The notes under the pieces: model-generated
Database searches by the model: none
What the model was told of the DNA's origin: nothing
What the model saw: only the letters and a program-made list of their open reading frames with translations
Shown: positions 5,618 through 27,537 of the stretch, piece by piece
How the letters are laid out: every line of letters begins with the position of its first letter
How positions within the stretch are numbered: the first letter of the stretch is position 1
Made by a program: the position numbers and the translations under genes
NCBI RefSeq assembly: GCF_009739905.1
Contig: NZ_CP034279.1
Span: 496,001-560,000, forward strand
DNA: 64,000 nt
Direction of reading: 5' to 3'
From: Streptomyces ficellus
Lineage (GTDB): Bacteria > Actinomycetota > Actinomycetes > Streptomycetales > Streptomycetaceae

Positions 5618-5658
5618 ATGTTCTGAGGGCTTTCGTCCCTCCGGGCACCGCCGTTCAT

Positions 5659-5697: not shown

Positions 5698-5704
5698 GCG
5701 GCGT

Positions 5705-6508: not shown

Positions 6509-6697
6509 GGCACCTCCCCTGCCCCGTTGCCCTGCGCGGCGGACGGGAAACCGGGCGGCCGCCCGGCAGTGGGACCTGTGGGGTGCGGGTTCTCGAAGGT
6601 TGCCATTGTTTTTTCGCTGTTTCCGTTATCACCGGCCCGGCGGCCGGTCTCCCAGGTGTCGGGCGGATCGTCGTCCGCGGGAGGAAGGAGCCGAGAA

Positions 6698-8371: not shown

Positions 8372-8455
8372 CCGGGCGACGACGGGCACGGCCGTTGATC
8401 GCCGTGCCCCGATCGGGGGGCTCCGGGCCGAGGCTTCAACCGGGGAAGAGGAGGG

Positions 8456-8479
8456 GCTTATCCTCGGACGACGGGGTAG
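8456..8479 (+). promoter_or_regulatory. Candidate SigB-type stress promoter
   Basis: GCTT (8456-8459), a 14-base spacer, then GGGTAG (8474-8479) resembles the Streptomyces SigB-class consensus GNNT-N14-16-GGGTAY, with the last base unmatched. It lies about 80 bases before the methanogen-output-domain gene and would drive it and the following phosphatase. Confidence 0.35.
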
Positions 8480-8558
8480 ATGGTCACCGCACCTCGCCGA
8501 CGACCCTGCGGCGGCAGACCGCGCGGTGCCCATCACGAGGGAGGAAGGGAGCGGGCAC

Positions 8559-9137: not shown

Positions 9138-9143
9138 ACCGAG

Positions 9144-10772: not shown

Positions 10773-10920
10773 GCCCCGCCGGGCGGGCGGTCCGCGTCTG
10801 CCGGCCGGTCCGGTGCCCCCTGCGGGTGAAGCGTGGGCCGAAGATCGCCGATTCCGCTCGTTCCGCCGCGAGACTGTGCCGCGGGGCCGCTGGGCCCACG
10901 GATCAGGGAAGGCGGACGCA

Positions 10921-13275: not shown

Positions 13276-13296
13276 CGCGTCCGGTGTTCCGTCCGT

Positions 13297-13327
13297 GACC
13301 GGGGTGATTGCCCGGTCCGGTGTTTTC
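13297..13327 (+). terminator. Hairpin with downstream T-run after the decarboxylase gene
   Basis: A seven-bp stem GACCGGG/CCCGGTC with loop GTGATTG is followed within a few bases by TGTTTTCT. It lies in the 64-base gap before the channel gene and would separate the two transcripts. Confidence 0.5.
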
Positions 13328-13339
13328 TGGGGGGTCTGT

Positions 13340-15235
13340 ATGGCGCGGCGCGCGTCCGGTCCGTGGTCACGCCTGCGGTACCGCTTCGACAACCTGATGG
13401 TCCACGGCACGCCCGTGCTCATCGGCTGGCTGACGCTGGTCTGCCTGGTGATCGTGGTTCCGGCCAGTGTGGTGCTCGTCTGGGCCGACCGCGGTGCTCC
13501 GTCCGGTTTCTCCGGGCGGGCGACGGCCGTCTGGCAGAGCGTCGGCCGCACGCTCAGGCTGGGTGGCGAGGTCGGTCCGCCCGTGTACGTGGCGATGTCG
13601 GTCCTGCTGGCGCTCGTGGCACTGCTGTTCGTGTCGGCGCTCGTCAGCCTGATCACCACGGGGCTCAACGAGCGCCTGCTGGCCTTGCGGCTGGGCCGGT
13701 CGGTGGTCCTGGAGGAGCGGCACACGGTGCTGCTCGGCTGGTCCGACCAGGTGTTCCCGGTCGTCGCGGAGCTGGTCGCCGCCAACGCCAATCAGCGCAG
13801 GGCGGCCGTCGCCGTGCTCGCCGACGAGGACAAGGCCCACATGGACGGCGAGATCGCGACGCACGTCGGTGACACGGGCACCACACGGGTGATCTGCCGC
13901 AGCGGTGCCACCACCGACCCGGCGGTCCTGCCGCGGGTGAGCCCCGGGACCGCGAAGGCCGTGCTGGTGCTGTCCCCCGGCGGCCCGGACGGCGACCGTC
14001 ATGTGGTGAAGACGCTGCTCGCCCTGGACGCGGCCGTGCCGCGCGCGGAGGACCGGGTGGTGGTCGCCGCGGTGCGCGAGCCCCGGCACCACACGGCCGC
14101 GGTCCTGGCCGCGGGCCCGCACGGGCACGTCCTGAGCATCGACGACATCGTCGCCCGGCTCCTGGTCCAGACCTCGCGACAGCCGGGACTGTCGCTCGTC
14201 TACCGGGAGTTGCTCGACTTCGCGGGTGACGAGTTCTATCTGGTGCCCGCCGCCGGGCTCGCCGGCCGTACGTTCGGCGAGGCGCTCAGCGCGTTCGCGA
14301 CCACCTCGGTGGCGGGGCTGGTCCGGGCCGGCGGGGACACCGTCCTCAGTCCGCCGCCCGACGTGCGCATCGGCGCCGGCGACCGGCTCGTGGTCATCAC
14401 CGAGGACGACGACACCGCGGTGCCGGCCGACACGGTGCCGCCCGTCGACGAGGACGCGATCGTCGCGGCCGGACCCCGCGCACCGGCGGCGGAACGGCTG
14501 CTGCTCCTCGGCTGGAACCGCCGCGCCCCGCTGATCGTCGAGCAGCTCGACCAGTACGTACGGCCCGGCTCGTCCCTGGACGTGGTGTCGCTGAGCGACG
14601 CGGCGACGCTGCGCTCGGCGGTGAGCGCGGTGGGCGGGTGCGTGCGCCTGCTGGTGACGTTCCACCACGGTGACATCACCGAGCGGCGGACGCTGAGCGG
14701 CCTGGACGTGCCGTCGTACGACAGCGTGATGCTCATCGCGGACGACGGGGGTTCGGCGCAGGCCGGTCCGGAGACGGACGACCGGACGCTGGTCACCCTG
14801 CTTCACCTGCGCGCCGTCGAGGAGGCCGCCGGGCGGGAGCTGTCCGTGATCACGGAGATGACCGACGACCGCAACCGGCTGCTGGCACCGGTGCGGCAGG
14901 GCGCGGACTTCATCGTCAGCGGCCGGCTGATCAGTCTGCTGATGACGCAGATCGCGGAGAACCGGCACCTGGCCGGTGTGTTCGACGAACTGTTCAGCGC
15001 CACCGGGAGCTCGATCCACCTGCGGCCGGCGGCCGACTACGTCCTGCCCGGCCGTGACGTCTCCTTCGCCACCGTGGTGGAGTCCGCGCGCCGCCGTCAG
15101 GAGTGCGCCATCGGCTACCGGCTGCGGGCCGAGGCGGCCACGGGTCCGTCCCACGGCGTGCGGATCAACCCGGACAAGCGCGTGCCGGTGCGGTTCGGGA
15201 CGGGGGACGCGGTGATCGTCGTGGCGGAGGGCTGA
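13340..15235 (+). CDS. CASTOR/POLLUX-related putative ion channel with tandem RCK (TrkA-N-like) domains
   Basis: A 631-residue membrane protein. Two hydrophobic helices occur at about 25-47 (VLIGWLTLVCLVIVVPASVV) and about 75-100. Two cytosolic Rossmann-like regions follow, starting with TVLLGWSDQVFPVVAELV near 130 and RLLLLGWNRRAPLIVEQL near 390, each the nucleotide-binding start of an RCK domain. This is the plan of bacterial relatives of plant CASTOR/POLLUX channels, and Streptomyces homologues carry that name. The ion (K+ or Ca2+) is unknown. ATG at 13340 directly precedes an Arg-rich segment ahead of the first helix. No RBS is obvious. Confidence 0.82.
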   Translation: MARRASGPWSRLRYRFDNLMVHGTPVLIGWLTLVCLVIVVPASVVLVWADRGAPSGFSGRATAVWQSVGRTLRLGGEVGPPVYVAMSVLLALVALLFVSALVSLITTGLNERLLALRLGRSVVLEERHTVLLGWSDQVFPVVAELVAANANQRRAAVAVLADEDKAHMDGEIATHVGDTGTTRVICRSGATTDPAVLPRVSPGTAKAVLVLSPGGPDGDRHVVKTLLALDAAVPRAEDRVVVAAVREPRHHTAAVLAAGPHGHVLSIDDIVARLLVQTSRQPGLSLVYRELLDFAGDEFYLVPAAGLAGRTFGEALSAFATTSVAGLVRAGGDTVLSPPPDVRIGAGDRLVVITEDDDTAVPADTVPPVDEDAIVAAGPRAPAAERLLLLGWNRRAPLIVEQLDQYVRPGSSLDVVSLSDAATLRSAVSAVGGCVRLLVTFHHGDITERRTLSGLDVPSYDSVMLIADDGGSAQAGPETDDRTLVTLLHLRAVEEAAGRELSVITEMTDDRNRLLAPVRQGADFIVSGRLISLLMTQIAENRHLAGVFDELFSATGSSIHLRPAADYVLPGRDVSFATVVESARRRQECAIGYRLRAEAATGPSHGVRINPDKRVPVRFGTGDAVIVVAEG

Positions 15236-15365
15236 CCGGCCACCACGAGGCTTCCGCGTGGTGCGGTCTTCACTCCTCGGGGTGGTCGTCCGTCGCCACC
15301 GTCGACTGCCAGGTGCGAACCCGACAACCGGGGGAAGAAGTAGCGGCAGCGAAAAGGAGGCTGCT

Positions 15366-16559
15366 GTGGACGGTGAAACACTGAGGATCGGGGACGTACT
15401 GGCCGAGGCGGCCGACGCCTCGCCGGTGGAGTCCGTGGACGTCGTCGCCCGCCACCTTCAAAAGCGCTTCCAAGCGGTGTGCGTCTCCTTCCTGTTCGCA
15501 GACCTCATCGGGGAGAAGCTCATCCGGCTGGCGATCGCCGACGGGCCGGAGGCCGAGCGGGAGGGCACCACGCGCATCGGCCTGCGGGGCAGTGTGTACG
15601 AGAAGGTGCTGCGGTCACAACGCCTGCACGTGGAGCCGCACGGCGACAACGCCCGGCGGGTCGTCGCGCCGGTCACCAACCGGGGCGACTGCATCGGTGT
15701 GCTGGAGATGACGCTGCCGTACACCGACGAGTCGACGCTGCGGCAAGTGCACGAGGCGGCGCGGGCGCTGGCGTACATCATCGTGACGGACCGCCGGTTC
15801 ACCGACCTCTACCACGTGGGGAGACGGACGACGCCGACGAGCCTGGCGGCCGAGATCCAGCACAACCTGCTTCCGTCGGCCTCGTGTTGCGAGGCGGCGC
15901 AGTTCTCGGTGGCCGGTGGCCTGGTGCCGGCCGACGACATCGGCGGCGACACCTACGACTACGCGCTGGACCGCGACACCCTGCACCTGTCCATCACGGA
16001 CGCCATGGGGCACGACACGGAGTCCGCCCTGCTGGCCACCCTCCTGGTGGCGGCGCTGCGCGGTGCCCGGCGGGCGGGCTGCGGGATCGCCGAGCAGGCC
16101 CGCCGGGCGCACCGGGCCCTGGTCGCCCACGACTGTGGCATCGCCACCGGTCAGCTGCTCCGGGTCGACCTGGGCGAAGGACGCGTCCAGCTCGTCAACG
16201 CCGGCCATCCGCGCCCCCTGCGGCTGCGCGACGGCGAGGTGGAGGAGCTCGCCCTCGCGGTGAACCTGCCCTTCGGGGTGCCCTCTCCGGTCCCGTACCG
16301 GGTCCAGGAGCTGGAGTTGCGGCCCGGTGACCGGCTGGTGCTGCTGACGGACGGCATGCAGGAGCGGTCCGCGTCGGCGGTGGACCTGCCGGCCCTCGTC
16401 CGGGACACCCGGTGGCTCCACCCGCGTGAGGCGGTCACCGCGCTGGTGGGCGCGGTGCGTACGGCCTGTCAGGACCGTCTGCCGGACGACGCCACGGTGA
16501 TGTGCCTCGACTGGTACGGCGCGGATGCCGCCGGGCGGCGGGAGTCGTGGTCCTCGTAG
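15366..16559 (+). CDS. GAF-PP2C (SpoIIE family) serine phosphatase
   Basis: A 397-residue soluble RsbU-like phosphatase, the second in 6 kb. Residues about 15-140 form a GAF-type sensor (VDVVARHLQKRF, VCVSFLFADL, RGDCIGVLEMTLPY). The PP2C domain spans about 165-385, with metal ligands in ADDIGGDTYDY and TDAMGHDTES, then NAGHPRPLRLRDG and LVLLTDGMQER. An excellent AAAGGAGG site (15353-15360) lies five bases before the GTG start at 15366, which decides the start. Its stop codon falls in a 15-bp tandem repeat. Probable substrate: a phosphorylated anti-anti-sigma factor encoded elsewhere. Confidence 0.9.
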   Translation: MDGETLRIGDVLAEAADASPVESVDVVARHLQKRFQAVCVSFLFADLIGEKLIRLAIADGPEAEREGTTRIGLRGSVYEKVLRSQRLHVEPHGDNARRVVAPVTNRGDCIGVLEMTLPYTDESTLRQVHEAARALAYIIVTDRRFTDLYHVGRRTTPTSLAAEIQHNLLPSASCCEAAQFSVAGGLVPADDIGGDTYDYALDRDTLHLSITDAMGHDTESALLATLLVAALRGARRAGCGIAEQARRAHRALVAHDCGIATGQLLRVDLGEGRVQLVNAGHPRPLRLRDGEVEELALAVNLPFGVPSPVPYRVQELELRPGDRLVLLTDGMQERSASAVDLPALVRDTRWLHPREAVTALVGAVRTACQDRLPDDATVMCLDWYGADAAGRRESWSS

Positions 16560-16595
16560 GAGAGGTCTTCGTAGCAACGGTCTTCGTAGGAGCGG
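16551..16595. repeat. Three tandem 15-bp repeats over the end of the phosphatase gene
   Basis: Units at 16551-16565, 16566-16580 and 16581-16595 share the form TCtTCGTAGgAgcGG with one to four differences. The first contains the TAG stop (16557-16559), so copy-number change could extend or shift the 3' end of the gene. Confidence 0.65.
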
Positions 16596-16615
16596 GGGGG
16601 TGAGGCGATGGTGGC

Positions 16616-16643
16616 GGAATGCGCCATTCCTTCACCGTGTGAA
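16616..16643. promoter_or_regulatory. Two adjacent perfect inverted repeats, possible operators or small hairpins
   Basis: GGAATG-CGC-CATTCC (16616-16630) is followed without a gap by TTCAC-CGT-GTGAA (16631-16643). Both have three-base centres, and they are less GC-rich than the surroundings. They lie about 200 bases before the small secreted protein gene and just after the phosphatase gene. Confidence 0.4.
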
Positions 16644-16843
16644 GAAATTGTCGGCACGCTGGGTGCCGTCGCCGGAGGCCTCGGCTCCGTATGGCCCTCA
16701 CGCGGGGCACATGCGTCCGCCGGGCCCTCCGACGGACGCACCGGTGACGCCCCGGTACCCGCGTCCTGTTCGAGCCGGTGAGCCCCGCGCACCGGCGGGA
16801 CGGGGCAGACGGCCGCGGCGGGCGTGTCCTAGCCTCCCGCGCC

Positions 16844-17383
16844 ATGCGCATCACACACCTCAGCAAAGCGATCCTGACCGCACTGCTCACCGTCGCCTTC
16901 GCCCTCGGCCTGAGCGGGCCGGCGACCGCGGCGGGGCAGGGGAACACCGGGGCCGCCGCCGCGGACCTGACCTTCACGGCCGACCAGCAGAGCGTCACGC
17001 CGGGGTCCACGGTCAACTTCACGATGACGTTCACCAACAACCAGGAGACGGACATCTGGTTCGTCTACCAGTCGGTGCAGCCGACGTGGCTCACCACCCA
17101 GCGCAAGGACCTGAAGTACGCGTTCACCTCCTGCACCGCCGACGGCGTGACCTGCTCGGGGACCGGCACCACGAGCGTGGGCATGAACTACGCCATCCCG
17201 CTGGCGCCGGGCGCGACCCGGACGGTGACGCTGTCCGTCCAGATCGCCGCCGACTCCGGCTGCAACGGGAACATCGGCTTCTACTCGTACCTCTACTACG
17301 AGTACAACGGCGGCCAGGCCACCAAGGACGGGGTGTTCAACACGCCCGAGACGCGGGTCGTCTGCGCGCCCGCCACCAGCTGA
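16844..17383 (+). CDS. Small secreted protein with DUF11-like/Ig-like fold, function unknown
   Basis: A 179-residue exported protein. A Sec signal peptide covers about 1-30 (positively charged start, hydrophobic ILTALLTVAFALGL, cleavage near ATAAG). The mature part reads as a beta-sandwich: QQSVTPGSTVNFTMTFTNNQ is typical of conserved-repeat/DUF11-like domains, and a C-terminal segment is rich in Tyr (GFYSYLYYEYN). Four cysteines could form two disulfides. ATG at 16844 was chosen because the signal peptide starts there; CCTAGCCT 10-16 bases upstream could be a -10 of a near-leaderless transcript. I do not recognise a specific function. Confidence 0.8.
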   Translation: MRITHLSKAILTALLTVAFALGLSGPATAAGQGNTGAAAADLTFTADQQSVTPGSTVNFTMTFTNNQETDIWFVYQSVQPTWLTTQRKDLKYAFTSCTADGVTCSGTGTTSVGMNYAIPLAPGATRTVTLSVQIAADSGCNGNIGFYSYLYYEYNGGQATKDGVFNTPETRVVCAPATS

Positions 17384-17423
17384 CCGACCCCCCCTTCTCG
17401 CAGGATCCCGTCCCCCGGCCCGC

Positions 17424-17459
17424 AGGCGGCCGGCCGCACCCGGGTGCGGCCGGCCGCCT
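17424..17459. terminator. Perfect 36-base palindrome, probable terminator
   Basis: Two 18-base arms (17424-17441 and 17442-17459) are fully complementary around a CCCGGG centre. It lies 40 bases after the stop of the secreted protein gene and well before the polysaccharide cluster. Confidence 0.8.
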
Positions 17460-17837
17460 CGTCGTGTGGCCGAAAACCGGCAGCGGCCCCCGGGGCTTCG
17501 CACGGGCCGGCCGGGCGCCTCCGGCAGGGCCGCCGCGCGGCCGGCCGCAAGCGATTTCCGCCGCGCCGCACCAGCGCCGCACTCCGCCGGGACCGTGCGG
17601 AGAGGCCCTTCCGCACAGCCCTTCGAGCGGCCCCGGGAACCGTCTCCCACCCGGTCCGGCACCTGCGCTTTTCCGTCATGTTCCACATCGTGCGCACGGA
17701 TCCTCCACACAGGCCGCACTATGTGACGCGTTGGAGCCGATCGGCGCCGCCTCGGCGAGGCGCGGCCGGGAGGCTGGGGGGTGGGGTGCGTCCGCCGGGG
17801 AGAGGCGGGCCGCCCTTCCGGGGAGGGACATCACCGC
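17460..17837. other. Gene-free upstream region of the polysaccharide cluster
   Basis: After the palindrome, about 380 bases carry no convincing gene. Overlapping long open frames here have no ribosome site and no family features. The second half is less GC-rich (TTCCGTCATGTTCCACATC near 17660 and CACTATGTGACG near 17716) and is the likely promoter region. No clear consensus promoter could be fixed. Confidence 0.5.
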
Positions 17838-19988
17838 ATGAAGCGGACGCTGCGCACGACCGCGCTCACCATGGGCGCGCTGTTACTCGGGCTCGGGTCC
17901 CCGGCCATACCGGCGACCACCGCGGCGGCGGACCCGGCGCCGCGCGTCGACCTGCGGGTCCTGGTCGTCACGGACGGCGGGCCGGCCACCGCGGCGATCG
18001 CCGCCGAGCTCGACGGCGCCGGGACCCCGTACACGCTGGTGGACCTCACCCGTGCGGACCGGCCCGTGATCGACGCGGCGTTCCTGGCCGACACCGTCGA
18101 CGGCCGGCCGCGGGCGAAGTTCCAGGCGGTAGTGCTGCCCAACGACGCCCCGTTCGCGGCCGGTTCGGGCGAGATGGCCGCGCTCGTCTCGTACGAGAGG
18201 ACCTACGCCGTCCCCCAGGTCGACGCCTACACCTACGCGAGACCGCAGAACGGGCTGGCCTACCCGGTGAACGGCGGCTACCTCGGCACCGTGGACGGGG
18301 TGCGCGCCGAGGTGACCGCGGCGGGCCGGTCGGGGCCGTTCGGGTACCTCGACGGCGCCGTGCCGTTCGAGGACAACTCACCCACGGTCAGCGAGAGTTA
18401 CGCGTTCCTGTCCCGGCCGGTCGCCGGGGCCGACTTCACGCCCTACGTCGAGGCGCCGATGCCCGGCCGGCAGACCCGGGGCGTCCTGGTCGGCGAGTAC
18501 CGCCACGACGGCCGCCGGGAGCTGGTGGTCACCTTCGCCTACAACCAGCACCAGCAGCAGTTCCGGCTCCTGGCGCGGGGGATCGTCGACTGGATGACCC
18601 AGGAGACCAGGCTCGGCACCTCGCGCAACTACTTCGCCGTGCACGTGGACGACGTCTTCGCGGCCGACGACCGCTGGGACACCACGCTGAACTGCACGCC
18701 CGGCGACGTGGACTGCGCGCCCGGCACCGGGGCCCCGGACCCGATCCGGATGACCGCCGCGGACGTCGAGCACGCGGCCCGGTGGTCGCGCGACCACGGG
18801 TTCACCCTCGACATGGCGTTCAACGGCGGCGGCAGCGTGGAGCACCGCGAGGAGCACGGCGGCAGCGATCCCGCCGCCGACCGGCTCGTCGCCGACCGCG
18901 ACGCGTTCCGCTGGATCAACCACACCTACGACCACCCCTACCTGGGGTGCGAGCAGGACGTCAGCAGCGTCCCGTGGAAGTGCGCCACCGACGCGGCGGG
19001 CGCCACCCGGTACGTGAGCCGCGCCGAGATCGACCACCAGATCGCCGGCAACCGCAGGTGGGCCGAGCGGGCCGGACTGCCGCTGCGCGACGGCGAACTG
19101 ATCACCGGCGAGCACTCGGGGCTCAGGCTGCTCCCGCAGCAGCCCGAGGACAACCCCCACCTGGCACCGTCGCTCACCGCCAACGGCATCGCCTGGCTCG
19201 GGGCCGACAACTCCCGCGACCCCGGGCAGCGGCAGGTGGGCTCCGCCCTGACCGTCGCCCGCCACCCGGTGAACATCTTCTACAACGCGGGCCGGGTCGC
19301 CGAGCAGGTCGACGAGTACAACTGGATCTACACCAGCCGGGCGCAGGGCGGCAGCGGCCTGTGCGAGGAACTGGCCACCACCACCTGTCTCGACGAGCCG
19401 CTGGACGCCGCGACCGGCTACACCGGTCACATCGTGCCGCTCGAGACGCGGGTCGCGCTCGGGCACGTCCTGTCCGGCGACCCCCGCCCGCACTTCATCC
19501 ACCAGTCCAACCTGGCCGAGGACCGCATCGCCTACCCCGTCCTCGACGGGGTGCTGGACCGGTACGCCGCCCTCCACGCCGCCAACACCCCCCTGGTGAA
19601 CCTGCCGATGAGCGCCATCGGGGCCGAGCTGCGCGACCGCGCGGCCTGGCGGACCGCGGTCCGGGACGGCGACGTCACCGCCTACCGCGTGGGTGACACG
19701 GTGACGGTGGAGGCCCCCGCGGGGCTGCCCGTCGCCGCCACCATGCCGGCCGGCACCGTCCACGGCGCCACCGCCTTCGGCGAGCCGTACGCCGGCACCA
19801 CCTCGGGCCGGGTCGCCGGCCCCGGGAGCGGCCCGATGACCCTCGCGCTGCCCGGTTCCGCCACCGGCGCGGACACGGCCGACACTGGCGCCGCGCGGAC
19901 CCCGGCACCGGCCCCGTACCGGAAGGCACCGCACACCCCGGTGCCCCCGGGGGTCACCCGGCCGGTGCCGCCCGGCCCGCAGGGCTGA
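17838..19988 (+). CDS. Secreted PelA-type polysaccharide deacetylase-like protein
   Basis: A 716-residue exported protein. The signal peptide (about 1-32) includes a rare TTA leucine codon at 17883-17885. Residues about 38-230 resemble a Rossmann/flavodoxin-like domain (VDLRVLVVTDGGPATAAIAAEL). Next is a deacetylase-like core: YFAVHVDDVF with Asp271/Asp272, then NHTYDH with His362-x3-His366, the Asp plus HxxxH metal site of CE4-related PelA deacetylases. The C-terminus is Pro/Ala-rich. PelA normally also carries a GH114 domain; here that enzyme is a separate gene at the end of the cluster. Probable role: deacetylation of an extracellular GalNAc polymer. That substrate is inferred from context. 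The gene lies 100 bases before the PelF-like gene. Confidence 0.75.
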   Translation: MKRTLRTTALTMGALLLGLGSPAIPATTAAADPAPRVDLRVLVVTDGGPATAAIAAELDGAGTPYTLVDLTRADRPVIDAAFLADTVDGRPRAKFQAVVLPNDAPFAAGSGEMAALVSYERTYAVPQVDAYTYARPQNGLAYPVNGGYLGTVDGVRAEVTAAGRSGPFGYLDGAVPFEDNSPTVSESYAFLSRPVAGADFTPYVEAPMPGRQTRGVLVGEYRHDGRRELVVTFAYNQHQQQFRLLARGIVDWMTQETRLGTSRNYFAVHVDDVFAADDRWDTTLNCTPGDVDCAPGTGAPDPIRMTAADVEHAARWSRDHGFTLDMAFNGGGSVEHREEHGGSDPAADRLVADRDAFRWINHTYDHPYLGCEQDVSSVPWKCATDAAGATRYVSRAEIDHQIAGNRRWAERAGLPLRDGELITGEHSGLRLLPQQPEDNPHLAPSLTANGIAWLGADNSRDPGQRQVGSALTVARHPVNIFYNAGRVAEQVDEYNWIYTSRAQGGSGLCEELATTTCLDEPLDAATGYTGHIVPLETRVALGHVLSGDPRPHFIHQSNLAEDRIAYPVLDGVLDRYAALHAANTPLVNLPMSAIGAELRDRAAWRTAVRDGDVTAYRVGDTVTVEAPAGLPVAATMPAGTVHGATAFGEPYAGTTSGRVAGPGSGPMTLALPGSATGADTADTGAARTPAPAPYRKAPHTPVPPGVTRPVPPGPQG

Positions 19989-20088
19989 CCCGCCGCGCTC
20001 CCCGCCCCACCCACTCCCCGCCCGGCCCCCGGGCACCGGTGCGCGTCACCGGTGCCCCGGCCGGCCCCTGCTGCCGCGGAGCACGTCC

Positions 20089-21594
20089 ATGCACGTATCG
20101 CACCCCGCGCCGCGCACCGGCGCGGCGCACGTCACCCTGCTCACCGAAGGCACCTACCCGCACAGTCACGGCGGCGTCAGCGTCTGGTGCGACCAACTCG
20201 TCAACGGCATGCCGGACATCGACTTCGAGGTGATCGCGGTGACGGGAACCGGCCGGGAACCACTCGTCTGGAAGATCCCCCCGCACGTGTCCGAGCCCGT
20301 CGCGGTCCCCATGTGGGGCCCCACGCCCACCGGCGCACCACCGTCGGGCCGCCGTGGGCGACGGCTCATGGCGGCGTACGAGCGGTTCCTCACCGCCCTG
20401 CTCGACCCCGCCCACGAGGAGCTGTTCGGGCCGGCGCTGCACGAGTTGGCGGGGGCCGCCCGCGACGGGCTGCTCAGCCCCGCCCTGCGCTCGGACCGCG
20501 CCGTCACGGTGCTGACCGGGGTGTGGAACCGGCCCGGCCTGACGGTCCGGGAGGCCCGCCCCTCCCTGCACGACGCCGTGACCGCCACGAACCTGCTGGA
20601 GCACGCCCTGCGTCCGCTGGCCGCGCGGCCGCCGCACCGCGGGGTGGCCCACGCGGTCAGCGGCGGCATCGCCGCGCTCCCGGGCCTGGCCGCACACCAA
20701 CTGCACGGTGTGCCCCTGCTGTTGACGGAGCACGGGGTGTACCTGCGCGAGCGGTACATCGGCTACCGGGGCGCCGCCTACCGCTGGCCCGTGAAGGCGG
20801 TGATGCTGGGCTTCTTCCGGCTGCTCGCCGGGGAGACGTACCGCCGGGCCGCGCTCATCACCCCGGGCAACCGCTACAACCGGCTGTGGGAGGAGCAGGG
20901 CGGGGCCGACCCCGCGCTGATCCGCACGGTCTACAACGGGGTGGACCCCGCCGCGTTCCCGGCCGCCGGCCCGGAACCGGAGCGCCCCACCCTCAGCTGG
21001 GCCGGCCGGGTCGACCCCATCAAGGACCTGGAGACGCTGATACGCGCCTTCGCGCAGGTGCGCGAGCGCATACCGGAGGCCGTGCTGCGGCTCTTCGGCG
21101 GGACGCCCCGCGGCGGCGAGGCCTACCGGGACCGGTGCGAGGAGCTGGCCCGTTCGCTGGGCCAGGGGGACGCCGTGACCTTCGAGGGCCGGGTGGAGGA
21201 CATCCGGGACGCCTACGCCGCGGGCAACGTGGTGATGCTGTCCAGCATCAGCGAAGGGTTCCCCTTCACCCTGATCGAGGCCATGTCGTGCGGGCGGGCC
21301 ACCGTCTCGACCGACGTGGGCGGGGTGCGCGAGGCGGTCGGGGGCGCCGGTCTGGTCGTACCGCCGCGCGACCCCGGCGCGATGGCCGCCGCCGCGCTGG
21401 AGCTCCTGAGCGACGCGCCGCGCCGGGCGGCGATGGGTGAGGCGGCACGGCTGCGGGTGATCGAGCAGTTCACGCTCCGGCAGACCGTGGAGACCTTCCG
21501 CTCCATCTACGTGGAACTCTCCGCCCCCGCCCGGGACGCACTCCCCCACCCGGAGCGCGCACACCTCGCCGCCCGCGGGAGCGTGGCCGGATGA
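20089..21594 (+). CDS. PelF-like GT4 family glycosyltransferase
   Basis: A 501-residue cytosolic glycosyltransferase of the GT-B fold. The N-terminal motif VTLLTEGTYPHSHGGVSVWC is the signature of PelF, the Pel polymer synthase. The C-terminal donor domain has SWAGRVDPIKDLETLIRAF, then ISEGFPFTLIEAMSCGRATV (an EX7E motif, about residues 387-395) and TDVGGVREAVGGAGLVVPP. By analogy it polymerises UDP-GalNAc/UDP-GlcNAc into an alpha-linked chain. ATG at 20089 follows GGAG by eight bases. It overlaps the next gene by four bases (ATGA), so synthase and membrane protein are translationally coupled. Confidence 0.88.
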   Translation: MHVSHPAPRTGAAHVTLLTEGTYPHSHGGVSVWCDQLVNGMPDIDFEVIAVTGTGREPLVWKIPPHVSEPVAVPMWGPTPTGAPPSGRRGRRLMAAYERFLTALLDPAHEELFGPALHELAGAARDGLLSPALRSDRAVTVLTGVWNRPGLTVREARPSLHDAVTATNLLEHALRPLAARPPHRGVAHAVSGGIAALPGLAAHQLHGVPLLLTEHGVYLRERYIGYRGAAYRWPVKAVMLGFFRLLAGETYRRAALITPGNRYNRLWEEQGGADPALIRTVYNGVDPAAFPAAGPEPERPTLSWAGRVDPIKDLETLIRAFAQVRERIPEAVLRLFGGTPRGGEAYRDRCEELARSLGQGDAVTFEGRVEDIRDAYAAGNVVMLSSISEGFPFTLIEAMSCGRATVSTDVGGVREAVGGAGLVVPPRDPGAMAAAALELLSDAPRRAAMGEAARLRVIEQFTLRQTVETFRSIYVELSAPARDALPHPERAHLAARGSVAG

Positions 21595-22904
21595 GCGGAC
21601 GGTCCGTTCCCGAGCCGGACAGCGACACCGTGACGCTGCGGCTGGCGGGACCGGTCGACGAGCTGGCCGCCGAACTGTCCGACCGGACGGCCTCGGCGAT
21701 GCACCCCTACGAAGTGGCGGCGCTCCTGGAATCCGAGGGGCTGACGGGAGAGCGGATACGGGAGCGGTACGGCCACCCGGACATCTTCTCCCTCGCCGAG
21801 GAGCTCTACCGGCGGGTGCCGCGCGCCTTCCCCGAGCCGCCCCCGGCCACCGACCCCTGGGCGCCCGACCACCTGCGCTGCGCCCTGCGCGGGTTGCTGT
21901 TCGCGCTCCCGGGGCTCGCCTATCCGCTGACCGCGCCGCTGTGGCGGGGGGCGGGGGCGGTGACCGGGCTGGTCCTCGCGGGGCTCGTGTCGTGGGCGTG
22001 GGGGCAGGCGCTGAGCCACCGCACCTACGTACGTCTCGCCACGGGCCGGCACGAGGCGGGTCTCACGCTGCGGGCCGGTGCGCCGGTGGGCGCCGTGCTG
22101 GCGAGCCTGGCCGCCCTGGCGGTGGCGGGACCGGGGGCGGCGGCCCTGTTCGCGGTGGGCCAGTCCGTGTACCTGGCCGCGGCGGGCGTCCTGCTGGTGC
22201 TGGGCCGTGAGCGGGTGCTGGCGGCGGCGCTGTCGCCGCTCGTCGTGGGCGGCGCGCTGCTGCTGTACGGGGAGCCGGGGGCGGCCTGGCGGGTCGGTCT
22301 GCCGCTGCTGGCCCTCGCGGCGACGACGGCGTCGGCCGTGCGCGCGGTGCGCGGCGCCCTCGGTTCGGCACCGGTGCCGGGGGCGGCCCGGCCGGGGTAC
22401 CTGTCCTCGTCGCCGTACGGGCTGTTCGGGCTGGCGGCGGGGGTCCTCGTGCTGTCCCTGGGGGCCCGGCACCCGTACACCGTGGTCGCGCTGACGGTGA
22501 GCATGGGGCCCGCCGAGTGGCTGCTGTACCGCTTCCGGGGGATGTCGGTGGCGGCGCTGCGGGCGTCGGCCACGCCCGCGGGGTTCCGGCTGCGGACGGC
22601 ACGCACCCTGACGTTCTGTCTCGCGGCGTACCTGGGGCTGCTCGTCCCGGCGGCGCTGCTGACCGGGGCGCCCGCGGCGGAGGTGGCCGCTCTGGGCGCC
22701 GCCCTGTGGGCCGCCCTGCTGCTCCAGGCCTTCGGCGCGGGCTGGTTCCCGGCGGCCGTGTGCCTCCTGGCGGCGGCCGGTGTCCTGGCGGCGGCCACCG
22801 GCGGGGCGCCGCCGTGGGTGTCCCTCGCCTGGTGCGCCGCCGCCGCGCTCGCCCTGGCCGGCTGCGTCCTGCACGTGCTGGGCCGGCCCTCCGCGCACGC
22901 CTGA
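21591..22904 (+). CDS. Polytopic membrane protein, candidate exporter for the PelF-like synthase
   Basis: A 437-residue protein with a cytosolic N-terminal helical region (about 1-95, containing MHPYEVAALLESEGLTGERI and DIFSLAEELYRRVPR), followed by about 12 hydrophobic segments from residue 100 to the end. I do not recognise a named family. It lacks the N-terminal signature I know for PelG but matches its topology and length (about 450 residues, 12 helices), and its start codon overlaps the PelF-like stop. It is best explained as the membrane partner that carries the nascent polymer across the cell membrane; this is inference from position and topology. Confidence 0.7.
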   Translation: MSGRSVPEPDSDTVTLRLAGPVDELAAELSDRTASAMHPYEVAALLESEGLTGERIRERYGHPDIFSLAEELYRRVPRAFPEPPPATDPWAPDHLRCALRGLLFALPGLAYPLTAPLWRGAGAVTGLVLAGLVSWAWGQALSHRTYVRLATGRHEAGLTLRAGAPVGAVLASLAALAVAGPGAAALFAVGQSVYLAAAGVLLVLGRERVLAAALSPLVVGGALLLYGEPGAAWRVGLPLLALAATTASAVRAVRGALGSAPVPGAARPGYLSSSPYGLFGLAAGVLVLSLGARHPYTVVALTVSMGPAEWLLYRFRGMSVAALRASATPAGFRLRTARTLTFCLAAYLGLLVPAALLTGAPAAEVAALGAALWAALLLQAFGAGWFPAAVCLLAAAGVLAAATGGAPPWVSLAWCAAAALALAGCVLHVLGRPSAHA

Positions 22905-22985
22905 CCGCACCTTCAGCACTTCCGTCTCGCGCACCACCGCCTCGCGCACCACACGACCAGCCATCCGGACGAAGGGGAACACCAC

Positions 22986-23987
22986 GTGACCTCCGCACCG
23001 CTCGCCGCCGTCACCGGAGCCGACGGGTTCATCGGCTCACACCTGACCGAGGCCCTGGTGGCCTCGGGGCACCGGGTCCGCGCCATGGCGCAGTACAACT
23101 CCTTCTCGTCGTACGGCTGGCTGGAGGTGCTGCCTCGCGACGTGCTCGACCAGGTCGAGATCGTCCTGGGCGACGTGCGCGACCCCGGTTCGGTGCGCGC
23201 CCTCGCCGAAGGGGCGGACGCCGTCTACCACCTGGCCGCGCTCATCGCGATCCCGTACTCCTACCGGGCGCCGCACAGCTACGTCGACACCAATGTGACG
23301 GGCACCCTCAACGTGCTGGAGGCGGTGCGGACGCTGGAGACGCCCCGGCTGGTGCACACCTCCACCAGCGAGACGTACGGCACCGCCCGTACGGTGCCCA
23401 TCACCGAGGACCACCCCATCAACACGCAGTCGCCGTACGCGGCGTCGAAGGCGGGCGGGGACCGGCTCGCCGACAGCTACCACGCGAGCTTCGGCACGCC
23501 GGTGGTCACCCTGCGCCCGTTCAACACCTTCGGCCCCCGGCAGTCGATGCGGGCCGTCATCCCGACCGTGATCGGACAGGTCGCCGCGGGCTCGCGCACG
23601 ATCACGCTCGGGGACCTGCGGCCGACCCGCGACTTCACCTATGTCGCCGACACGGCGCGGGCGTTCCTGGCCGTCGGCACCGCCCCGGCCGAACGCGTCG
23701 TGGGGCGGACCTTCAACGCCGGTACGGGGCAGGAGATCTCGGTCGGCGACCTGGTCCGGCTCATCGGCAAGGTGATGGGCGCCGACCTGGACGTCCAGGA
23801 GGACGCGCAGCGCATCCGGCCCGCGGCCTCGGAGGTCATGCGGCTGGTCGCGGACGCCACCCGGCTGCGCGACGCCACGGGCTGGGCGCCGGGCCACGAC
23901 CTGGAGCAGGGCCTCGCCCGGACCGTCGAGTTCTTCCGCGACCCGGCGCATCTCGCCCGCTACAAGACGGACATCTACAACATCTGA
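22986..23987 (+). CDS. NAD-dependent nucleotide-sugar 4,6-dehydratase/epimerase, LegB-like
   Basis: An extended SDR of 333 residues. The NAD site [13 protein letters not shown] is at residues 9-21, the active site SPYAASK has Tyr151 and Lys155, and STSETYG supplies the Ser/Thr. Segments [28 protein letters not shown] and [18 protein letters not shown] match LegB-type dehydratases closely. Such enzymes convert UDP-GlcNAc-type sugars to 4-keto intermediates or epimerise them. In this cluster it probably supplies the modified hexosamine donor. The GTG start at 22986 follows AAGGGG. No nonulosonate synthase gene is present, which argues against a legionaminic acid pathway. Confidence 0.85.
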
Positions 23988-24030
23988 CCCGCACGGAACC
24001 CGTACGAGCCATGGAGAGGGAGGCATCCCC

Positions 24031-24744
24031 ATGCACGCAGTGATACTCGCCGGGGGCAAGGGTGTGCGGTTGCGTCCGTACACCACCGCACTGCCCAAGC
24101 CGCTGGTGCCCATCGGGGACCGGCACGCGATCCTGGAGATCGTGCTGCGGCAGCTGGCGGCGGCCGGCTTCACCAGCTGCACGCTGGCCATCGGCCACCT
24201 CGGGCAGATCATCCGCGCCTACGTGGGCAACGGCTCGCGGTGGGGCCTGGAGGTCGACTACGCGGCCGAGGAGAGCCCGCTGGGCACGATCGGGCCGCTG
24301 CTGATGATGCGGGACCGGCTGCCCGAGACGTTCCTGGTGATGAACGGCGACGTCCTGACCGACCTCGACTACGCCGATCTGCTGCGCCGCCACGCCGGCG
24401 GGGACGCCCCGCTGACGATCGCCACCTACTGCCGCCAGGTGCACATCGACTTCGGGGTGCTCACCACCGACGCCGGCAAGGTCGTCGGGTTCAGCGAGAA
24501 GCCCAGCCTGGACTACCGGGTCTCCATGGGCGTGTACGGGCTGTCGCGCGCCACGCTGGAGCACTACACGCCGGGCCTGCCGCTCGGTTTCGACGAACTG
24601 ATCCTCGACCTGCTGGACACGCCCACTCCCCCGGCGTCGTACGAGTTCGACGGCTACTGGCTCGACATCGGGCGGCCGGACGACTACGACCGGGCCAACG
24701 CGGAGTTCACCACCCACCAGTCCCTCCTGCTGAAGGGGGCCTGA
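24031..24744 (+). CDS. Sugar-1-phosphate nucleotidyltransferase
   Basis: A 237-residue enzyme that joins a sugar-1-phosphate to an NTP. The signature [19 protein letters not shown] is at residues 5-23, with [13 protein letters not shown] (metal-binding Asp) near 107-119 and [19 protein letters not shown] further on. It is a single-domain form without a C-terminal hexapeptide-repeat acyltransferase, like the guanylyl/thymidylyl transferases of LegF/RfbA-type. Nucleotide and sugar cannot be decided here. It lies 43 bases after the LegB-like gene and seven bases before the next SDR gene, in one operon. Confidence 0.87.
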
Positions 24745-24751
24745 GACCCGC

Positions 24752-25681
24752 ATGCGCATCCTCGTCCTGGGCTCCACCGGCTACCTGGGGGGCCACGTCA
24801 CCGCCGGGCTGCGCGCCGTCGAGGGGGCGCGGCTGCTCCTCGGCGGCCGCTCCCCCGGCACCGACCTGGCGGTGGACCTCGCGACGGCCCGGACCGGTCC
24901 GCTGTGCGAGGCGCTCGCCCCGCTCGCGCCCGACGTGGTGGTCAACTGCGCGGGCGCCGTGGGGGGCGACCCGGTGACGCTCGCGGAGGTGAACGCCCGG
25001 GGGCCGGCCGTGCTGTGCGCCGCGCTGCGGGAGGCCGCGCCGGGCGCCCGGCTGGTCCACCTCGGGTCGGCCGCCGAGTACGGCCCCGGCACCGCCGGGG
25101 AGCCGGTCACGGAAGGGGCACCGACCCGGCCGGTCGCCCCCTACGGGGCCACCAAGCTCGCCGGGACGGTCGCCGTCACCTCGTCCGGTCTGGACGCCGT
25201 CGTCCTGCGGGTGGGCAACCCGGTCGGGCCGGGGGCTCCGGCGGCCGGGCTGCCCGGAGGTCTGGCGAGACGGCTGTACCGGGCGGGCGGGGACGCGGCG
25301 GAGCCGGTGCGGCTCGGCGACCTCTCCGCGTACCGCGACTTCGTGGACGTGCGCGACGTCGCCCGTGCGGTGGTGCTCGCGGTGACCCGGCCGGGCCCGG
25401 TGCCCCCGGTGCTGAACGTCGGCGGCGGGCGGGCGGTGCCCGTGCGCGACCTGGTGCACGGGCTGGCGCGTACGGCCGGGTTCACGGGCCGTATCGAGGA
25501 GGCGGGCGGCGGGTCGGCCCGCTCGGCCGCCGTCGCCTGGCAGTGCTCCGACATCTCCGCGGCGCGCGAGGCGCTGGGGTGGGCGCCCCGGTACGGGCTC
25601 GCCGACTCGCTCGCGGCGCTGTGGGCGGCCGTCGCGGACGCGGCACCGGCGGCGGGCGCGGGCCTGGACGTGGTGCGGTGA
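24752..25681 (+). CDS. NAD-dependent epimerase/dehydratase (SDR)
   Basis: A 309-residue extended SDR. LVLGSTGYLGGHVTAGL gives the Rossmann site (residues 4-20), VVNCAGAVGGDP the next strand, HLGSAAEYGPG the Ser region and PYGATKLAG the YxxxK pair. It resembles dTDP-4-dehydrorhamnose reductase/UDP-sugar epimerase families and is a second sugar-modifying enzyme in this cluster, perhaps a C4-epimerase giving the GalNAc donor. ATG at 24752 lies seven bases after the preceding stop. The stop overlaps the next start by four bases (GTGA). Confidence 0.82.
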   Translation: MRILVLGSTGYLGGHVTAGLRAVEGARLLLGGRSPGTDLAVDLATARTGPLCEALAPLAPDVVVNCAGAVGGDPVTLAEVNARGPAVLCAALREAAPGARLVHLGSAAEYGPGTAGEPVTEGAPTRPVAPYGATKLAGTVAVTSSGLDAVVLRVGNPVGPGAPAAGLPGGLARRLYRAGGDAAEPVRLGDLSAYRDFVDVRDVARAVVLAVTRPGPVPPVLNVGGGRAVPVRDLVHGLARTAGFTGRIEEAGGGSARSAAVAWQCSDISAAREALGWAPRYGLADSLAALWAAVADAAPAAGAGLDVVR

Positions 25682-26481
25682 CGGGGCTCGCCCGGCGGGG
25701 GGTGCGGCCGTCGCTGCTGGTGGCCGCGCTGCTCCTGGTGGTCGCGGGGTGCGCCGGGGACACCGCCCCCCGGCCGCCCCGGGAGCGCTGGGTGCCGCGG
25801 CCGGGCACGGCGTGGGAGTGGCAGCTGGACGGCCGGGTCGACCCGCGTGCCGACGTACCGGTGTACGACATCGACGGTTTCGAGAACAGCGCCGAGGACG
25901 TGGCGCGGCTGCACCGGGACGGCCGCCGGGTCGTCTGCTACGTCAACGCCGGCGCCTGGGAGGACTTCCGTCCCGACAGGGACGACTTCCCCGCGTCCGT
26001 CCGGGGCCGGCCCAACGGCTGGAGCGGCGAACGGTGGCTGGACGTCCGGCGCCTGGACGTCCTGCGGCCGCTGATGGAACGTCGGCTGGACATGTGCCGG
26101 CGGAAGGGCTTCGACGCGGTGGAGCCGGACCTCGTGGACGGCTACCTCCACGACACCGGTTTCCCGCTCGAAGCCGCGCACCAGCTCGCGTACAACCGCA
26201 TGATCGCCCGGGCGGCGCACGAGCGGGGCCTGTCGGTCGGGCTGAAGAACGACCTGCCGCAGATCCCGGAGCTGGTCGGCACGTTCGACTTCGCGGTGAA
26301 CGAGCAGTGCGCCGAGTACGGCGAGTGCGCGCGGCTCAGCCCGTTCGTCCGGGCGGGCAAGGCGGTGTTCCACGTCGAGTACGGGCTCGCGCGGGCCGAC
26401 TTCTGCGCCGAGACGCGCCGGCTGGGCCTGTCGTCGATGCGCAAGCGGCTACGGCTGGACACCTGGCGTCAGGCCTGCTGA
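25678..26481 (+). CDS. GH114 endo-alpha-1,4-polygalactosaminidase-like lipoprotein
   Basis: A 267-residue exported lipoprotein. The signal peptide ends in lipobox VAGC (Cys near residue 25). The rest is a GH114 (TM1410-like) barrel: WQLDGRVDPRADVPVYDIDG at the first strand, then RVVCYVNAGAWEDFRPD, FDAVEPDLVDGY with the acidic residues expected of the active site, and LKNDLPQIPELVGTFDFAVN. GH114 enzymes cut alpha-1,4-linked galactosamine polymers and form the N-terminal domain of PelA. Here it is separate and membrane-anchored, presumably trimming or releasing the polymer. The GTG start overlaps the preceding stop, placing it in the same operon, and the stop lies inside a hairpin. Confidence 0.9.
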   Translation: MTGLARRGVRPSLLVAALLLVVAGCAGDTAPRPPRERWVPRPGTAWEWQLDGRVDPRADVPVYDIDGFENSAEDVARLHRDGRRVVCYVNAGAWEDFRPDRDDFPASVRGRPNGWSGERWLDVRRLDVLRPLMERRLDMCRRKGFDAVEPDLVDGYLHDTGFPLEAAHQLAYNRMIARAAHERGLSVGLKNDLPQIPELVGTFDFAVNEQCAEYGECARLSPFVRAGKAVFHVEYGLARADFCAETRRLGLSSMRKRLRLDTWRQAC

Positions 26482-26485
26482 CGCC
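26465..26485 (+). terminator. Hairpin overlapping the GH114 stop codon
   Basis: GGCGTCAG and CTGACGCC pair around GCCTG, with the TGA stop (26479-26481) in the right arm. It closes the polysaccharide operon 30 bases before a convergent gene. An 11-base direct repeat GCGGCCGGTCA follows at 26499-26509 and 26510-26520. Confidence 0.55.
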
Positions 26486-26517
26486 GGGTGTCCGGGCGGC
26501 GGCCGGTCAGCGGCCGG

Positions 26518-27537
26518 TCAGCGGGCTTCGGCCAGTTCGGGGTGGTGGCGGCGGGCGACCTCGGGGTGGGCGCGCACCCAGCCCTTGAGTTCGTTGCGGC
26601 CGTACTCGGCGTGCAGGGGATTGGCGTGGTCGTGCGCGATGCCCGGTGCCCGGCCGAGGTAGCCGCCCGGGACGGTGTCGATGACGGCGTCGAGGCGGGG
26701 GTTGTAGAAGAACGGCACGGAGAAGCGCTCCACGGCGCCGGGCGGGCTGACGACCCGGTGGTCGGTCGCGACGAGGTAGCCGTTCGTCGCGATCTCCAGC
26801 AGCTCGCCCAGGTTGACCACGAAGGCGCCGGGCATGGGAGGGACTTCGATGAACGTGTCGCCGGAGCGCACCTGGAGCCCGCCCACGCCGTCCTGGAGCA
26901 GCAGCGTCAGGAAGCCGTAGTCCTTGTGGGCCCCCACGCCCTGGCCGCTGCCGGAGGGCGCCGATCCGGGGTAGCGGATCAGCTTGGTGTGCAGGTGGGG
27001 CCGGTCGGCGAAGGCCTCGTCGAAGAAGCCGGCGGGCGCGCCGATGGACACCAGCAGTTCGCGCAGCAGCCGGTGGGCCACCGCGGCCAGCCGCTCCTGC
27101 CAGGCCAGCACGACGGTGCGCAGTTCGGGCAGGGCGGCCGGCCACTGGTTGGGGCCCTCCAGCCACAGGTACGCGGGGTCGTCCGGGCCCACCGCCGGTG
27201 CGGGCCGTTCGGCGCCGACGTCGAGCTGGTCGCGCCAGTCGGAGCGGCCGCCGGTGAGCTCGTGCCCGATCCGCGTGTAGCCGCGGAAGTGCGGCGAGCG
27301 CAGGTTGCTGAGGGCCAGCCGGTCGGCCTCGGGCAGTGCGAAGAACTCCCGGGTGACGCGGAGGATCCGGTCCGTCTCCGCCGGGCCGATGCCGTGGCCG
27401 GTCAGGTGGAGGAACCCGACGTCGTGGGCGGCGTCGTGCAGTTCCTCGTGGAACGCCGCGCGGGTGGCGGGGTCGTCGGCCCGGGACAGGTCGATGACGG
27501 GCAGCGAGGTGGTGGACGCTGGTGGCATGGACGGCAT
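26518..27537 (-). CDS. 2-oxoglutarate/Fe(II)-dependent oxygenase, isopenicillin-N-synthase-like family
   Basis: A 339-residue non-heme iron oxygenase. The N-terminal DIOX_N region reads LPVIDLSRADDPATRAAF and VGFLHLTGHGIG. The C-terminal jelly-roll has iron ligands in GAHKDYGFLTLLLQD (His and Asp near 203-205) and ATDHRVVSPPG (His near 259), and the 2OG-binding RFSVPFFYNP. The substrate is unknown; the family covers hydroxylation, desaturation and ring formation. ATG at 27537 has GGAAGG eight bases upstream; a second ATG nine bases in is less well placed. It is convergent to the polysaccharide operon and divergent from the hydrolase gene. Confidence 0.88.
   Translation of the reverse strand: MPSMPPASTTSLPVIDLSRADDPATRAAFHEELHDAAHDVGFLHLTGHGIGPAETDRILRVTREFFALPEADRLALSNLRSPHFRGYTRIGHELTGGRSDWRDQLDVGAERPAPAVGPDDPAYLWLEGPNQWPAALPELRTVVLAWQERLAAVAHRLLRELLVSIGAPAGFFDEAFADRPHLHTKLIRYPGSAPSGSGQGVGAHKDYGFLTLLLQDGVGGLQVRSGDTFIEVPPMPGAFVVNLGELLEIATNGYLVATDHRVVSPPGAVERFSVPFFYNPRLDAVIDTVPGGYLGRAPGIAHDHANPLHAEYGRNELKGWVRAHPEVARRHHPELAEAR

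What the first reader, a model, noticed from the sequence alone, without database searches (positions are those of the whole stretch)
17838..26481. Rearranged Pel-like exopolysaccharide cluster in a single-membrane actinomycete
In sequence: a secreted protein with an Asp plus HxxxH deacetylase site, a GT4 with the PelF N-terminal signature, a 12-helix membrane protein coupled to it, two SDR sugar enzymes, a nucleotidyltransferase and a GH114 lipoprotein, all on one strand with overlapping or short spacings. In Pel systems GH114 and deacetylase are domains of one PelA protein; here they are two genes at opposite ends of the cluster. Outer-membrane parts are absent, as expected. I infer an alpha-1,4-linked galactosamine-type polymer made, deacetylated and trimmed at the Streptomyces surface. 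I see no gene for a PelD-like c-di-GMP receptor.
Basis: partly seen in the sequence, partly recalled or inferred. Interest (0 to 1): 0.85.

Follow-up and report, generated by a model that had tools for sequence, protein, structure and literature searches.

The report
Streptomyces version of a mould's coat
The two end genes of a seven-gene Streptomyces cluster match, one by sequence and one by predicted structure, the enzymes that cut and deacetylate galactosaminogalactan, the sticky amino-sugar coat of moulds, and three sugar genes between them would probably supply a 6-deoxy building block, so this soil bacterium likely makes a chemical variant of that coat.

Summary

Added here: (1) the genome holds three related clusters; cluster B has CE18, GT4, membrane protein, Sph3 and GH114 without sugar genes. 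(2) The window's type adds a nucleotidyltransferase, a LegB-like dehydratase and an SDR, and lacks Sph3, present there in 55 of 58 named clusters. (3) With these sugar genes the GH114 residue after the catalytic Asp is Leu (58 of 58 named; 16 Leu, 1 Thr of 17 readable in a second set); without them it is Asn (12 of 12), as in Ega3. One orphan GH114 breaks the pattern, and it is essentially one evolutionary change. I infer a GAG-like polymer with a 6-deoxy amino sugar.

The parts
16844..17383 (+). small secreted protein (ATG at 16844), weakly DUF7927-like; possible accessory member in the window's close relatives only
   Evidence: homolog within 3 kb upstream of the deacetylase gene in 59 of 69 named loci with enough upstream DNA; none in four Streptomyces B-type loci (L098, L104, L105, L106); among the 21 loci with the sugar genes it was found only in L107; DUF7927 20.9 bits, below cut-off 31
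17838..19988 (+). Agd3-like (CE18-type) secreted polysaccharide de-N-acetylase (predicted)
20089..21594 (+). PelF-class GT4 with DUF3492 N-terminal domain, predicted polymerase
   Evidence: PF11997 208 bits; NCBIfam PelF NF038011 172.6 bits, cut-off 100
21591..22904 (+). 12-helix membrane protein, predicted MATE/MOP fold, with a helical N-terminal part (about 1-88)
22986..23987 (+). LegB-like NAD-dependent sugar 4,6-dehydratase (predicted)
   Evidence: TIGR04180 453.3 bits (cut-off 475, so just below) against 169.5 for the next model; STSETYG and YAASK invariant in 68 sequences
24031..24744 (+). sugar-1-phosphate nucleotidyltransferase, nearest solved relatives mannose-1-phosphate guanylyltransferases
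   Evidence: PF00483 125 bits; best PDB 7d72, mannose-1-phosphate guanyltransferase beta, E 7.9e-30
24752..25681 (+). extended SDR, 4-keto-sugar reductase or 4-epimerase
   Evidence: PF01370 121.6 bits; nearest PDB 6wjb and 6wj9, then 2pk3 and 6x3b, named GDP-6-deoxy-hexulose/mannose reductases
25678..26481 (+). GH114 endo-galactosaminidase-family lipoprotein (Ega3-like)
   Evidence: PF03537 275.5 bits; best PDB Ega3 6oj1 E 3.7e-52; D151 and E209 at the same 58-residue spacing as Ega3 D189/E247 (counted by hand; roles)
26131..26133 (+). codon of GH114 Leu152, the residue right after the catalytic nucleophile; Asn in Ega3 and in sister clusters
25678..25681 (+). SDR/GH114 overlap, the place where most related clusters carry a Spherulin4 (Sph3-type) gene
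   Evidence: present here in 55 of 58 named loci with both neighbours in view; absent in L005, L006, L008 and not found in the window

Best explanation
This cluster carries an Ega3-type GH114 hydrolase and, by predicted fold, an Agd3-type deacetylase as in the galactosaminogalactan (GAG) cluster of moulds, and likely makes, exports, deacetylates and trims a GAG-like polymer that probably contains a 6-deoxy amino sugar. Proposed steps, all inferred from family, predicted fold and neighbourhood: the nucleotidyltransferase (24031) activates a sugar-1-phosphate, perhaps with GTP; the LegB-like enzyme (22986) makes the 4-keto-6-deoxy form; the second SDR (24752) sets carbon 4, giving for example NDP-N-acetylfucosamine or NDP-N-acetylquinovosamine. 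The PelF-class GT4 (20089) polymerises it, alone or mixed with GalNAc, and hands the chain to its coupled MATE/MOP-fold partner (21591). Outside, the Agd3-like enzyme (17838) removes acetyl groups and makes the polymer cationic and adhesive; the GH114 lipoprotein (25678) cuts deacetylated stretches, its site changed from Asn to Leu beside the nucleophile. A sister cluster (B) without the sugar genes would make the plain GalNAc-type polymer.
Against: P0001 itself matches no Pfam model. The GT4 and membrane protein were not compared with fungal Gtb3; that they are its counterpart rests on function class alone. The Leu-type GH114s of this cluster form one clade (support 0.865), so the correlation rests on essentially one change, and one orphan GH114 without sugar genes has Leu too (L140/L144). 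P0004 misses the LegB cut-off. SDRs like P0006 occur in clusters C and D without a LegB-like dehydratase, so P0006 may be a 4-epimerase. No call shows which atom of the sugar faces the Asn/Leu position. Sph3-type genes compared by eye between clusters A and B showed no equally clean difference. No chemistry or expression was examined. Six of 61 long named loci show no GH114.
Confidence: 0.53

Rival explanations
1. Plain GAG/Pel-like polymer: the sugar genes only supply UDP-GalNAc or a minor side sugar, and the main chain is alpha-1,4-GalNAc/GalN as in GAG and Pel.
For: GT4, deacetylase and hydrolase are all of families tied to GalNAc polymers; the best PDB match of both SDRs is 6wjb, which I recall, untested, as the Pel-associated UDP-GlcNAc 4-epimerase PelX; P0006-like SDRs stand without a LegB-like dehydratase in clusters C and D.
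Against: A 4-epimerase alone needs no nucleotidyltransferase or dehydratase; P0004 scores 453 bits to LegB against 148 to GalE; the GH114 site differs in clusters with these genes; cluster B has none of them.
Confidence: 0.3
2. Rearranged Pel system: a Pel operon whose PelA was split and whose outer-membrane parts were lost.
For: GT4 passes the PelF model; MOP fold of the membrane protein, which I recall is also PelG's superfamily.
Against: Deacetylase is Agd3-like, not PelA-like; hydrolase is GH114, PelA's is GH166; PelG over its cut-off in 0 of 148 actinomycetes. [quoted passage not shown]
Confidence: 0.08
3. The locus decorates another wall polymer (for example a teichoic-acid-like chain), with the GT4 adding a few residues and no free exopolysaccharide.
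For: Galactosamine-containing polysaccharides are reported from Streptomyces cell walls (cited in PMC7229062, passage).
Against: A GT4 coupled to a predicted MOP-fold protein, with an endo-acting hydrolase family, looks like a polymerising system; none of the genes scanned in or beside the cluster matched a transferase to a wall carrier.
Confidence: 0.09

Closest known systems
Aspergillus fumigatus galactosaminogalactan cluster (uge3, gtb3, agd3, ega3, sph3)
   Same: Agd3-like deacetylase (predicted fold), Ega3-like GH114, a glycosyltransferase plus membrane protein, SDR sugar enzymes; Spherulin4/Sph3-type gene in most relatives and in the own genome's cluster B
   Different: GT4 and membrane part are two coupled genes (gtb3 is described as one integral membrane glycosyltransferase; not compared by sequence); three sugar genes in place of the single epimerase; Sph3 missing in the window; GH114 has Leu for Asn beside the nucleophile
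Bacterial agd3-containing operons (Bamford et al. 2020, PMC7229062; section on bacterial homologs read whole)
   Same: glycosyltransferase, multi-spanning membrane protein, GH114, sometimes Spherulin-4, in Actinobacteria among others
   Different: the sections and passages I read do not mention a dehydratase/nucleotidyltransferase cassette, several clusters per genome, or the GH114 site change; figure 8c and the supplements were not available to me
Gram-positive Pel operon pelDEADAFG (Whitfield et al. 2020, PMC7112168; passages)
   Same: PelF-class GT4, deacetylase, no outer-membrane parts
   Different: no PelG match; Agd3-type instead of PelA-type deacetylase; GH114 instead of PelA's hydrolase; no PelD found (control silent)
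LegB / GDP-sugar 4,6-dehydratase pathways (recalled)
   Same: dehydratase plus nucleotidyltransferase plus SDR
   Different: no aminotransferase or acetyltransferase among the cluster's seven genes; P0004 is below the LegB cut-off

Membership tests
CE18 (Agd3-type deacetylase) | three-domain Agd3 architecture | tested here: met
CE18 (Agd3-type deacetylase) | metal triad Asp + HxxxH, catalytic base Asp, catalytic acid His | tested here: met
   D271, D272, H362, H366, H555 in 38 of 38; assigned by order and motif, not by residue-level superposition
CE18 (Agd3-type deacetylase) | CM3 arginine (Agd3 R613) | tested here: inconclusive
   R475 in 37 of 38 with Y482 at the same +7 spacing as R613/Y620; not superposed
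CE18 (Agd3-type deacetylase) | Pfam Agd3_CE cut-off | tested here: inconclusive
   P0001 none; of 8 relatives scanned, P0088 passes (29.9 against 27.6), 6 match below cut-off, P0015 not at all; L103 passes with 44.1
CE18 (Agd3-type deacetylase) | deacetylates alpha-1,4-GalNAc polymer | not testable with these tools
   needs enzyme assay
GH114 | family model and catalytic Asp/Glu pair | tested here: met
   275.5 bits, cut-off 27; D151/E209
GAG-type gene set | CE18 deacetylase and GH114 | tested here: met
GAG-type gene set | Gtb3-type integral membrane glycosyltransferase | tested here: inconclusive
   a GT4 and a membrane protein are present as two coupled genes; neither was compared with Gtb3
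GAG-type gene set | Sph3 (GH135, Spherulin4) | tested here: not met
   not found in the window; in the own genome only in clusters B and C
GAG-type gene set | UDP-sugar 4-epimerase (Uge3/GalE) | tested here: not met
   no GalE over cut-off among the seven genes; LegB-like, NTP and SDR genes stand instead
Pel system | PelF | tested here: met
   NF038011 172.6 bits, cut-off 100; GT4s of clusters B and D also pass
Pel system | PelG | tested here: not met
   0 of 46 family members match PF16933; 0 in own genome; 0 of 148 over cut-off, 1 below it; MOP fold predicted
Pel system | PelA (GH166 plus deacetylase in one protein, or PelA-type deacetylase) | tested here: not met
Pel system | PelD c-di-GMP receptor | tested here: inconclusive
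   no PF16963 hit in own genome, but no control rang
LegB | TIGR04180 cut-off | tested here: not met
   453.3 against 475; LegB-like only
MATE/MOP superfamily | 12-helix MOP fold | tested here: met

The most novel reading that the evidence does not exclude
Streptomyces makes a cationic exopolysaccharide whose backbone is a 6-deoxy amino sugar (for example poly-N-acetylfucosamine/fucosamine): a GAG-type machine re-tuned by swapping its epimerase for a GDP-sugar dehydratase cassette, with the trimming hydrolase changed from Asn to Leu next to its nucleophile. It coexists in one cell with a plain GAG-type cluster, so one genome would write two chemically distinct, separately trimmed coats, with the core acting as a chassis for exchangeable sugar cassettes (GalE in L101; none in B; dehydratase in A; sugar dehydrogenase in D).
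Probability: 0.33. Interest if true: 0.78.

Novelty: new variant of a known kind. Interest (0 to 1): 0.56.

Why it matters
GAG and Pel are adhesive, cationic biofilm polymers. A GAG-type gene set in many streptomycetes (deacetylase homolog in 33 of 61 Streptomyces genomes), with three related clusters in this genome, would give the galactosaminidase activity reported from Streptomyces griseus in 1975 (no sequence available; PMC12054363 and PMC7229062, passages) a candidate home substrate, and would offer a harmless model for a fungal virulence polymer. If a cassette swap changes the sugar, the cluster pairs give a natural test of how synthase, deacetylase and hydrolase follow a change of monomer.

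Tried and rejected
Rejected: split PelA (hydrolase is GH114, deacetylase is Agd3-like). Rejected: membrane protein = PelG by sequence. ORF 16525-17841 (P0008) and 25749-26588 (P0007) were translated and set aside as spurious frames. The promoter/terminator scan gave 0 promoter-like sites and 3 terminator-like sites against 1.1 expected; not used. phmmer against PDB sequences found nothing for P0001 up to E 1 and only two matches at E above 1 for P0003. Spherulin4 proteins of clusters A and B were aligned and looked at by eye; no clean A/B difference. Paper searches bearing on this cluster in print. Among their listings I opened PMC7229062 (sections 9 and 13 and passages), PMC12054363, PMC7112168 and PMC4817252 (passages only); the other papers I saw only as listing lines and abstract starts, so I cannot say that none describes such a cluster. 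The Ega3 paper PMC6746457 is not held, so I could not check what the Asn contacts. A Fisher test on the GH114 residue is not used as evidence, because the sequences are related.

Rows dropped or partial: the 80 named loci are the best of 185 relatives found and lean to cluster A; the class (148 genomes, 10 with a match), genus (61, 33 with a match) and family (61, 29 with a match, 8 of 17 genera) surveys are the less biased counts. GH114 loci are the 30 the tool fetched out of a longer table. The tree used every third named GH114 (20 of 58) with the 30 loci, the window, three further loci and the Ega3 stretch. Sets overlap and are not added together, L154 and L155 repeat loci L104 and L105 (none of the four shows a GH114). 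The homolog search scored 7995 candidates and reported 1953 significant ones, 120 listed, 29 used with P0001 and 8 loci in the alignment.

Full report
What is there. The window lies at 496001-560000 of a single 7.08 Mb contig; the named relatives found are Streptomyces. The seven genes exist as described and five have clear families by Pfam/NCBIfam: PelF-class GT4, two extended SDRs, a nucleotidyltransferase and a GH114 lipoprotein. The secreted protein and the membrane protein match no Pfam or NCBIfam model.

Three clusters in one genome. Cluster A is the window. Cluster B (L098, contig 5357000 onward) is CE18, GT4, membrane protein, Spherulin4 and GH114 in a row, with no sugar genes. Cluster C (L100) has GT4, membrane protein, SDR and Spherulin4, with no deacetylase found. 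B parallels the fungal GAG cluster apart from its epimerase. In another actinomycete family, L101 adds a GalE above cut-off (337 bits against 262.3), so counterparts of all five fungal functions stand together there. That bacteria carry agd3 operons with a glycosyltransferase, a multi-spanning membrane protein, GH114 and in some Actinobacteria Spherulin-4 was reported in 2020 (PMC7229062, section 13 read whole), with the proposal that fungi received the cluster from bacteria (passage). The kind is therefore known.

What is particular to cluster A. (i) Sugar cassette: LegB-like dehydratase, nucleotidyltransferase and SDR lie after the membrane gene in the named loci long enough to show them. 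Of 61 Streptomyces genomes 33 have a homolog of the deacetylase and 15, own included, a LegB-like gene of at least 80% identity; each of the 15 has a deacetylase homolog within 5 kb on the same contig, in G162 only a fragment. A sixteenth genome in the tally has only a 56% paralog. (ii) Sph3 loss: of 58 named loci with SDR and GH114 both in view, 55 have a Spherulin4-type gene between them; the 3 without are L005, L006 and L008, among the window's closest relatives (84, 84 and 79% in the deacetylase), so the window's lineage probably lost it. (iii) A small secreted protein upstream in 59 of 69 named loci; it was found in only 1 (L107) of the 21 loci with the sugar genes, so it belongs to the window's close relatives, not to the type as a whole.

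The hydrolase site. Ega3's nucleophile D189 and acid/base E247 (PMC12054363, passage) map to D151 and E209 with equal spacing. The residue after the nucleophile is Asn in Ega3, in the two B-type enzymes and in those of two other actinomycete families, and Leu in the 13 cluster-A enzymes first aligned. Counts: 58 of 58 named cluster-A enzymes Leu. Among 30 GH114 loci fetched from 61 Streptomyces genomes, 5 of 5 near a LegB gene Leu; 15 of 15 near a deacetylase without LegB Asn; 10 near neither: 7 Asn and 3 Leu. Of these 3, one looks like a decayed cluster A (L143: part of the NTP gene, SDR, Sph3 pieces), one like a cluster A split over contigs (L145), one is a true orphan (L144). Among 42 loci of the wider set, 21 had LegB and NTP: 16 Leu, 1 Thr, 1 unreadable, 3 without GH114 in view; 19 had neither: 12 Asn and 7 without GH114 in view; 2 had NTP only and no GH114 in view. 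The Leu enzymes of cluster A form one clade (0.865), so this is close to a single evolutionary change and cannot by itself prove that sugar and hydrolase changed together.

What the cassette may make. P0005 is nearest to mannose-1-phosphate guanylyltransferases among solved proteins, P0004 to the LegB model (453 bits, just under cut-off) with STSETYG and YAASK invariant in 68 sequences (that this triad marks 4,6-dehydratases such as GMD is recalled, as is its use in UDP-xylose synthases), and P0006 to PDB entry 6wjb and GDP-6-deoxy-sugar reductases. A 6-deoxy amino sugar, with a polar residue lost beside the hydrolase nucleophile, is the reading that joins these facts. Against it, P0006-like SDRs stand without a LegB-like dehydratase in clusters C and D; D (L153) has a nucleotide-sugar dehydrogenase (291.8 bits, cut-off 189.8) and another SDR instead. 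I hold GAG-type machinery at about 0.8 and the 6-deoxy sugar at about 0.45; the first figure was 0.85 in my draft and is lowered, with the overall confidence, because Gtb3 was never compared.

Limits. No expression, chemistry or structure with ligand was available. Named loci favour cluster A by the way they were found. Absence of PelD is unproven. Whether figure 8c or the supplements of PMC7229062 already show the cassette could not be checked.

Noticed in passing
L098 (G000:C1:5357000-5376999), about 9937-16467: Second cluster of the same genome: CE18, GT4, membrane protein, Spherulin4, GH114, no sugar genes; a close bacterial mirror of the fungal GAG core.
   Followed up: yes
L100 (G000:C1:2535000-2554000), about 5129-10234, - strand: Third related cluster: DUF3492 GT4, membrane protein, SDR, Spherulin4, no deacetylase found.
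   Followed up: partly
L153 68-9575 and L184 5093-15265: Fourth cluster type: Agd3-like protein (in L103/L153 CBM87 and Agd3_CE over cut-off), GT4, membrane protein, NTP, P0006-like SDR, and in L153 a nucleotide-sugar dehydrogenase and another SDR; no GH114 in view. Suggests exchangeable sugar cassettes. L184 was matched only by homology, its sugar dehydrogenase not checked.
   Followed up: partly
L101 224-10177: Actinomycete of another family with GH114, two Spherulin4-like genes, membrane protein, GT4 and GalE on one strand and the CE18 gene divergent: counterparts of all five fungal GAG functions together.
   Followed up: partly
window 16844-17383: Small secreted protein, weak DUF7927 match, upstream of the deacetylase in 59 of 69 named loci but nearly absent from more distant clusters of the type; role unknown.
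   Followed up: partly
L143 9017-11554: Apparently decayed cluster A: tail of NTP gene, SDR, pieces of Sph3 and a GH114 that keeps the Leu.
   Followed up: partly
L144 9950-10906: Orphan GH114 with Leu after the nucleophile and no sugar genes near; a 1249-aa ORF without Pfam match lies upstream and a beta-lactamase-family gene downstream.
   Followed up: partly
L170 (G251): Cluster A in which the GH114 residue is Thr instead of Leu or Asn; a natural variant worth assaying.
   Followed up: no
window 9144-16559: Upstream neighbours: two SpoIIE-type phosphatases (9144-10772, 15258-16559), an Orn/Lys/Arg decarboxylase (10813-13275) and a Castor/Pollux-like channel (13295-15235).
   Followed up: no
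window 34529-36151: Animal haem peroxidase family protein (PF03098, 151.7 bits) in a streptomycete.
   Followed up: no
Relatives of the deacetylase are widespread (1953 significant among those scored); most of the 120 listed are named 'hypothetical protein' or 'secreted protein', a few 'polysaccharide deacetylase'. They could be re-annotated as Agd3-like.
   Followed up: no
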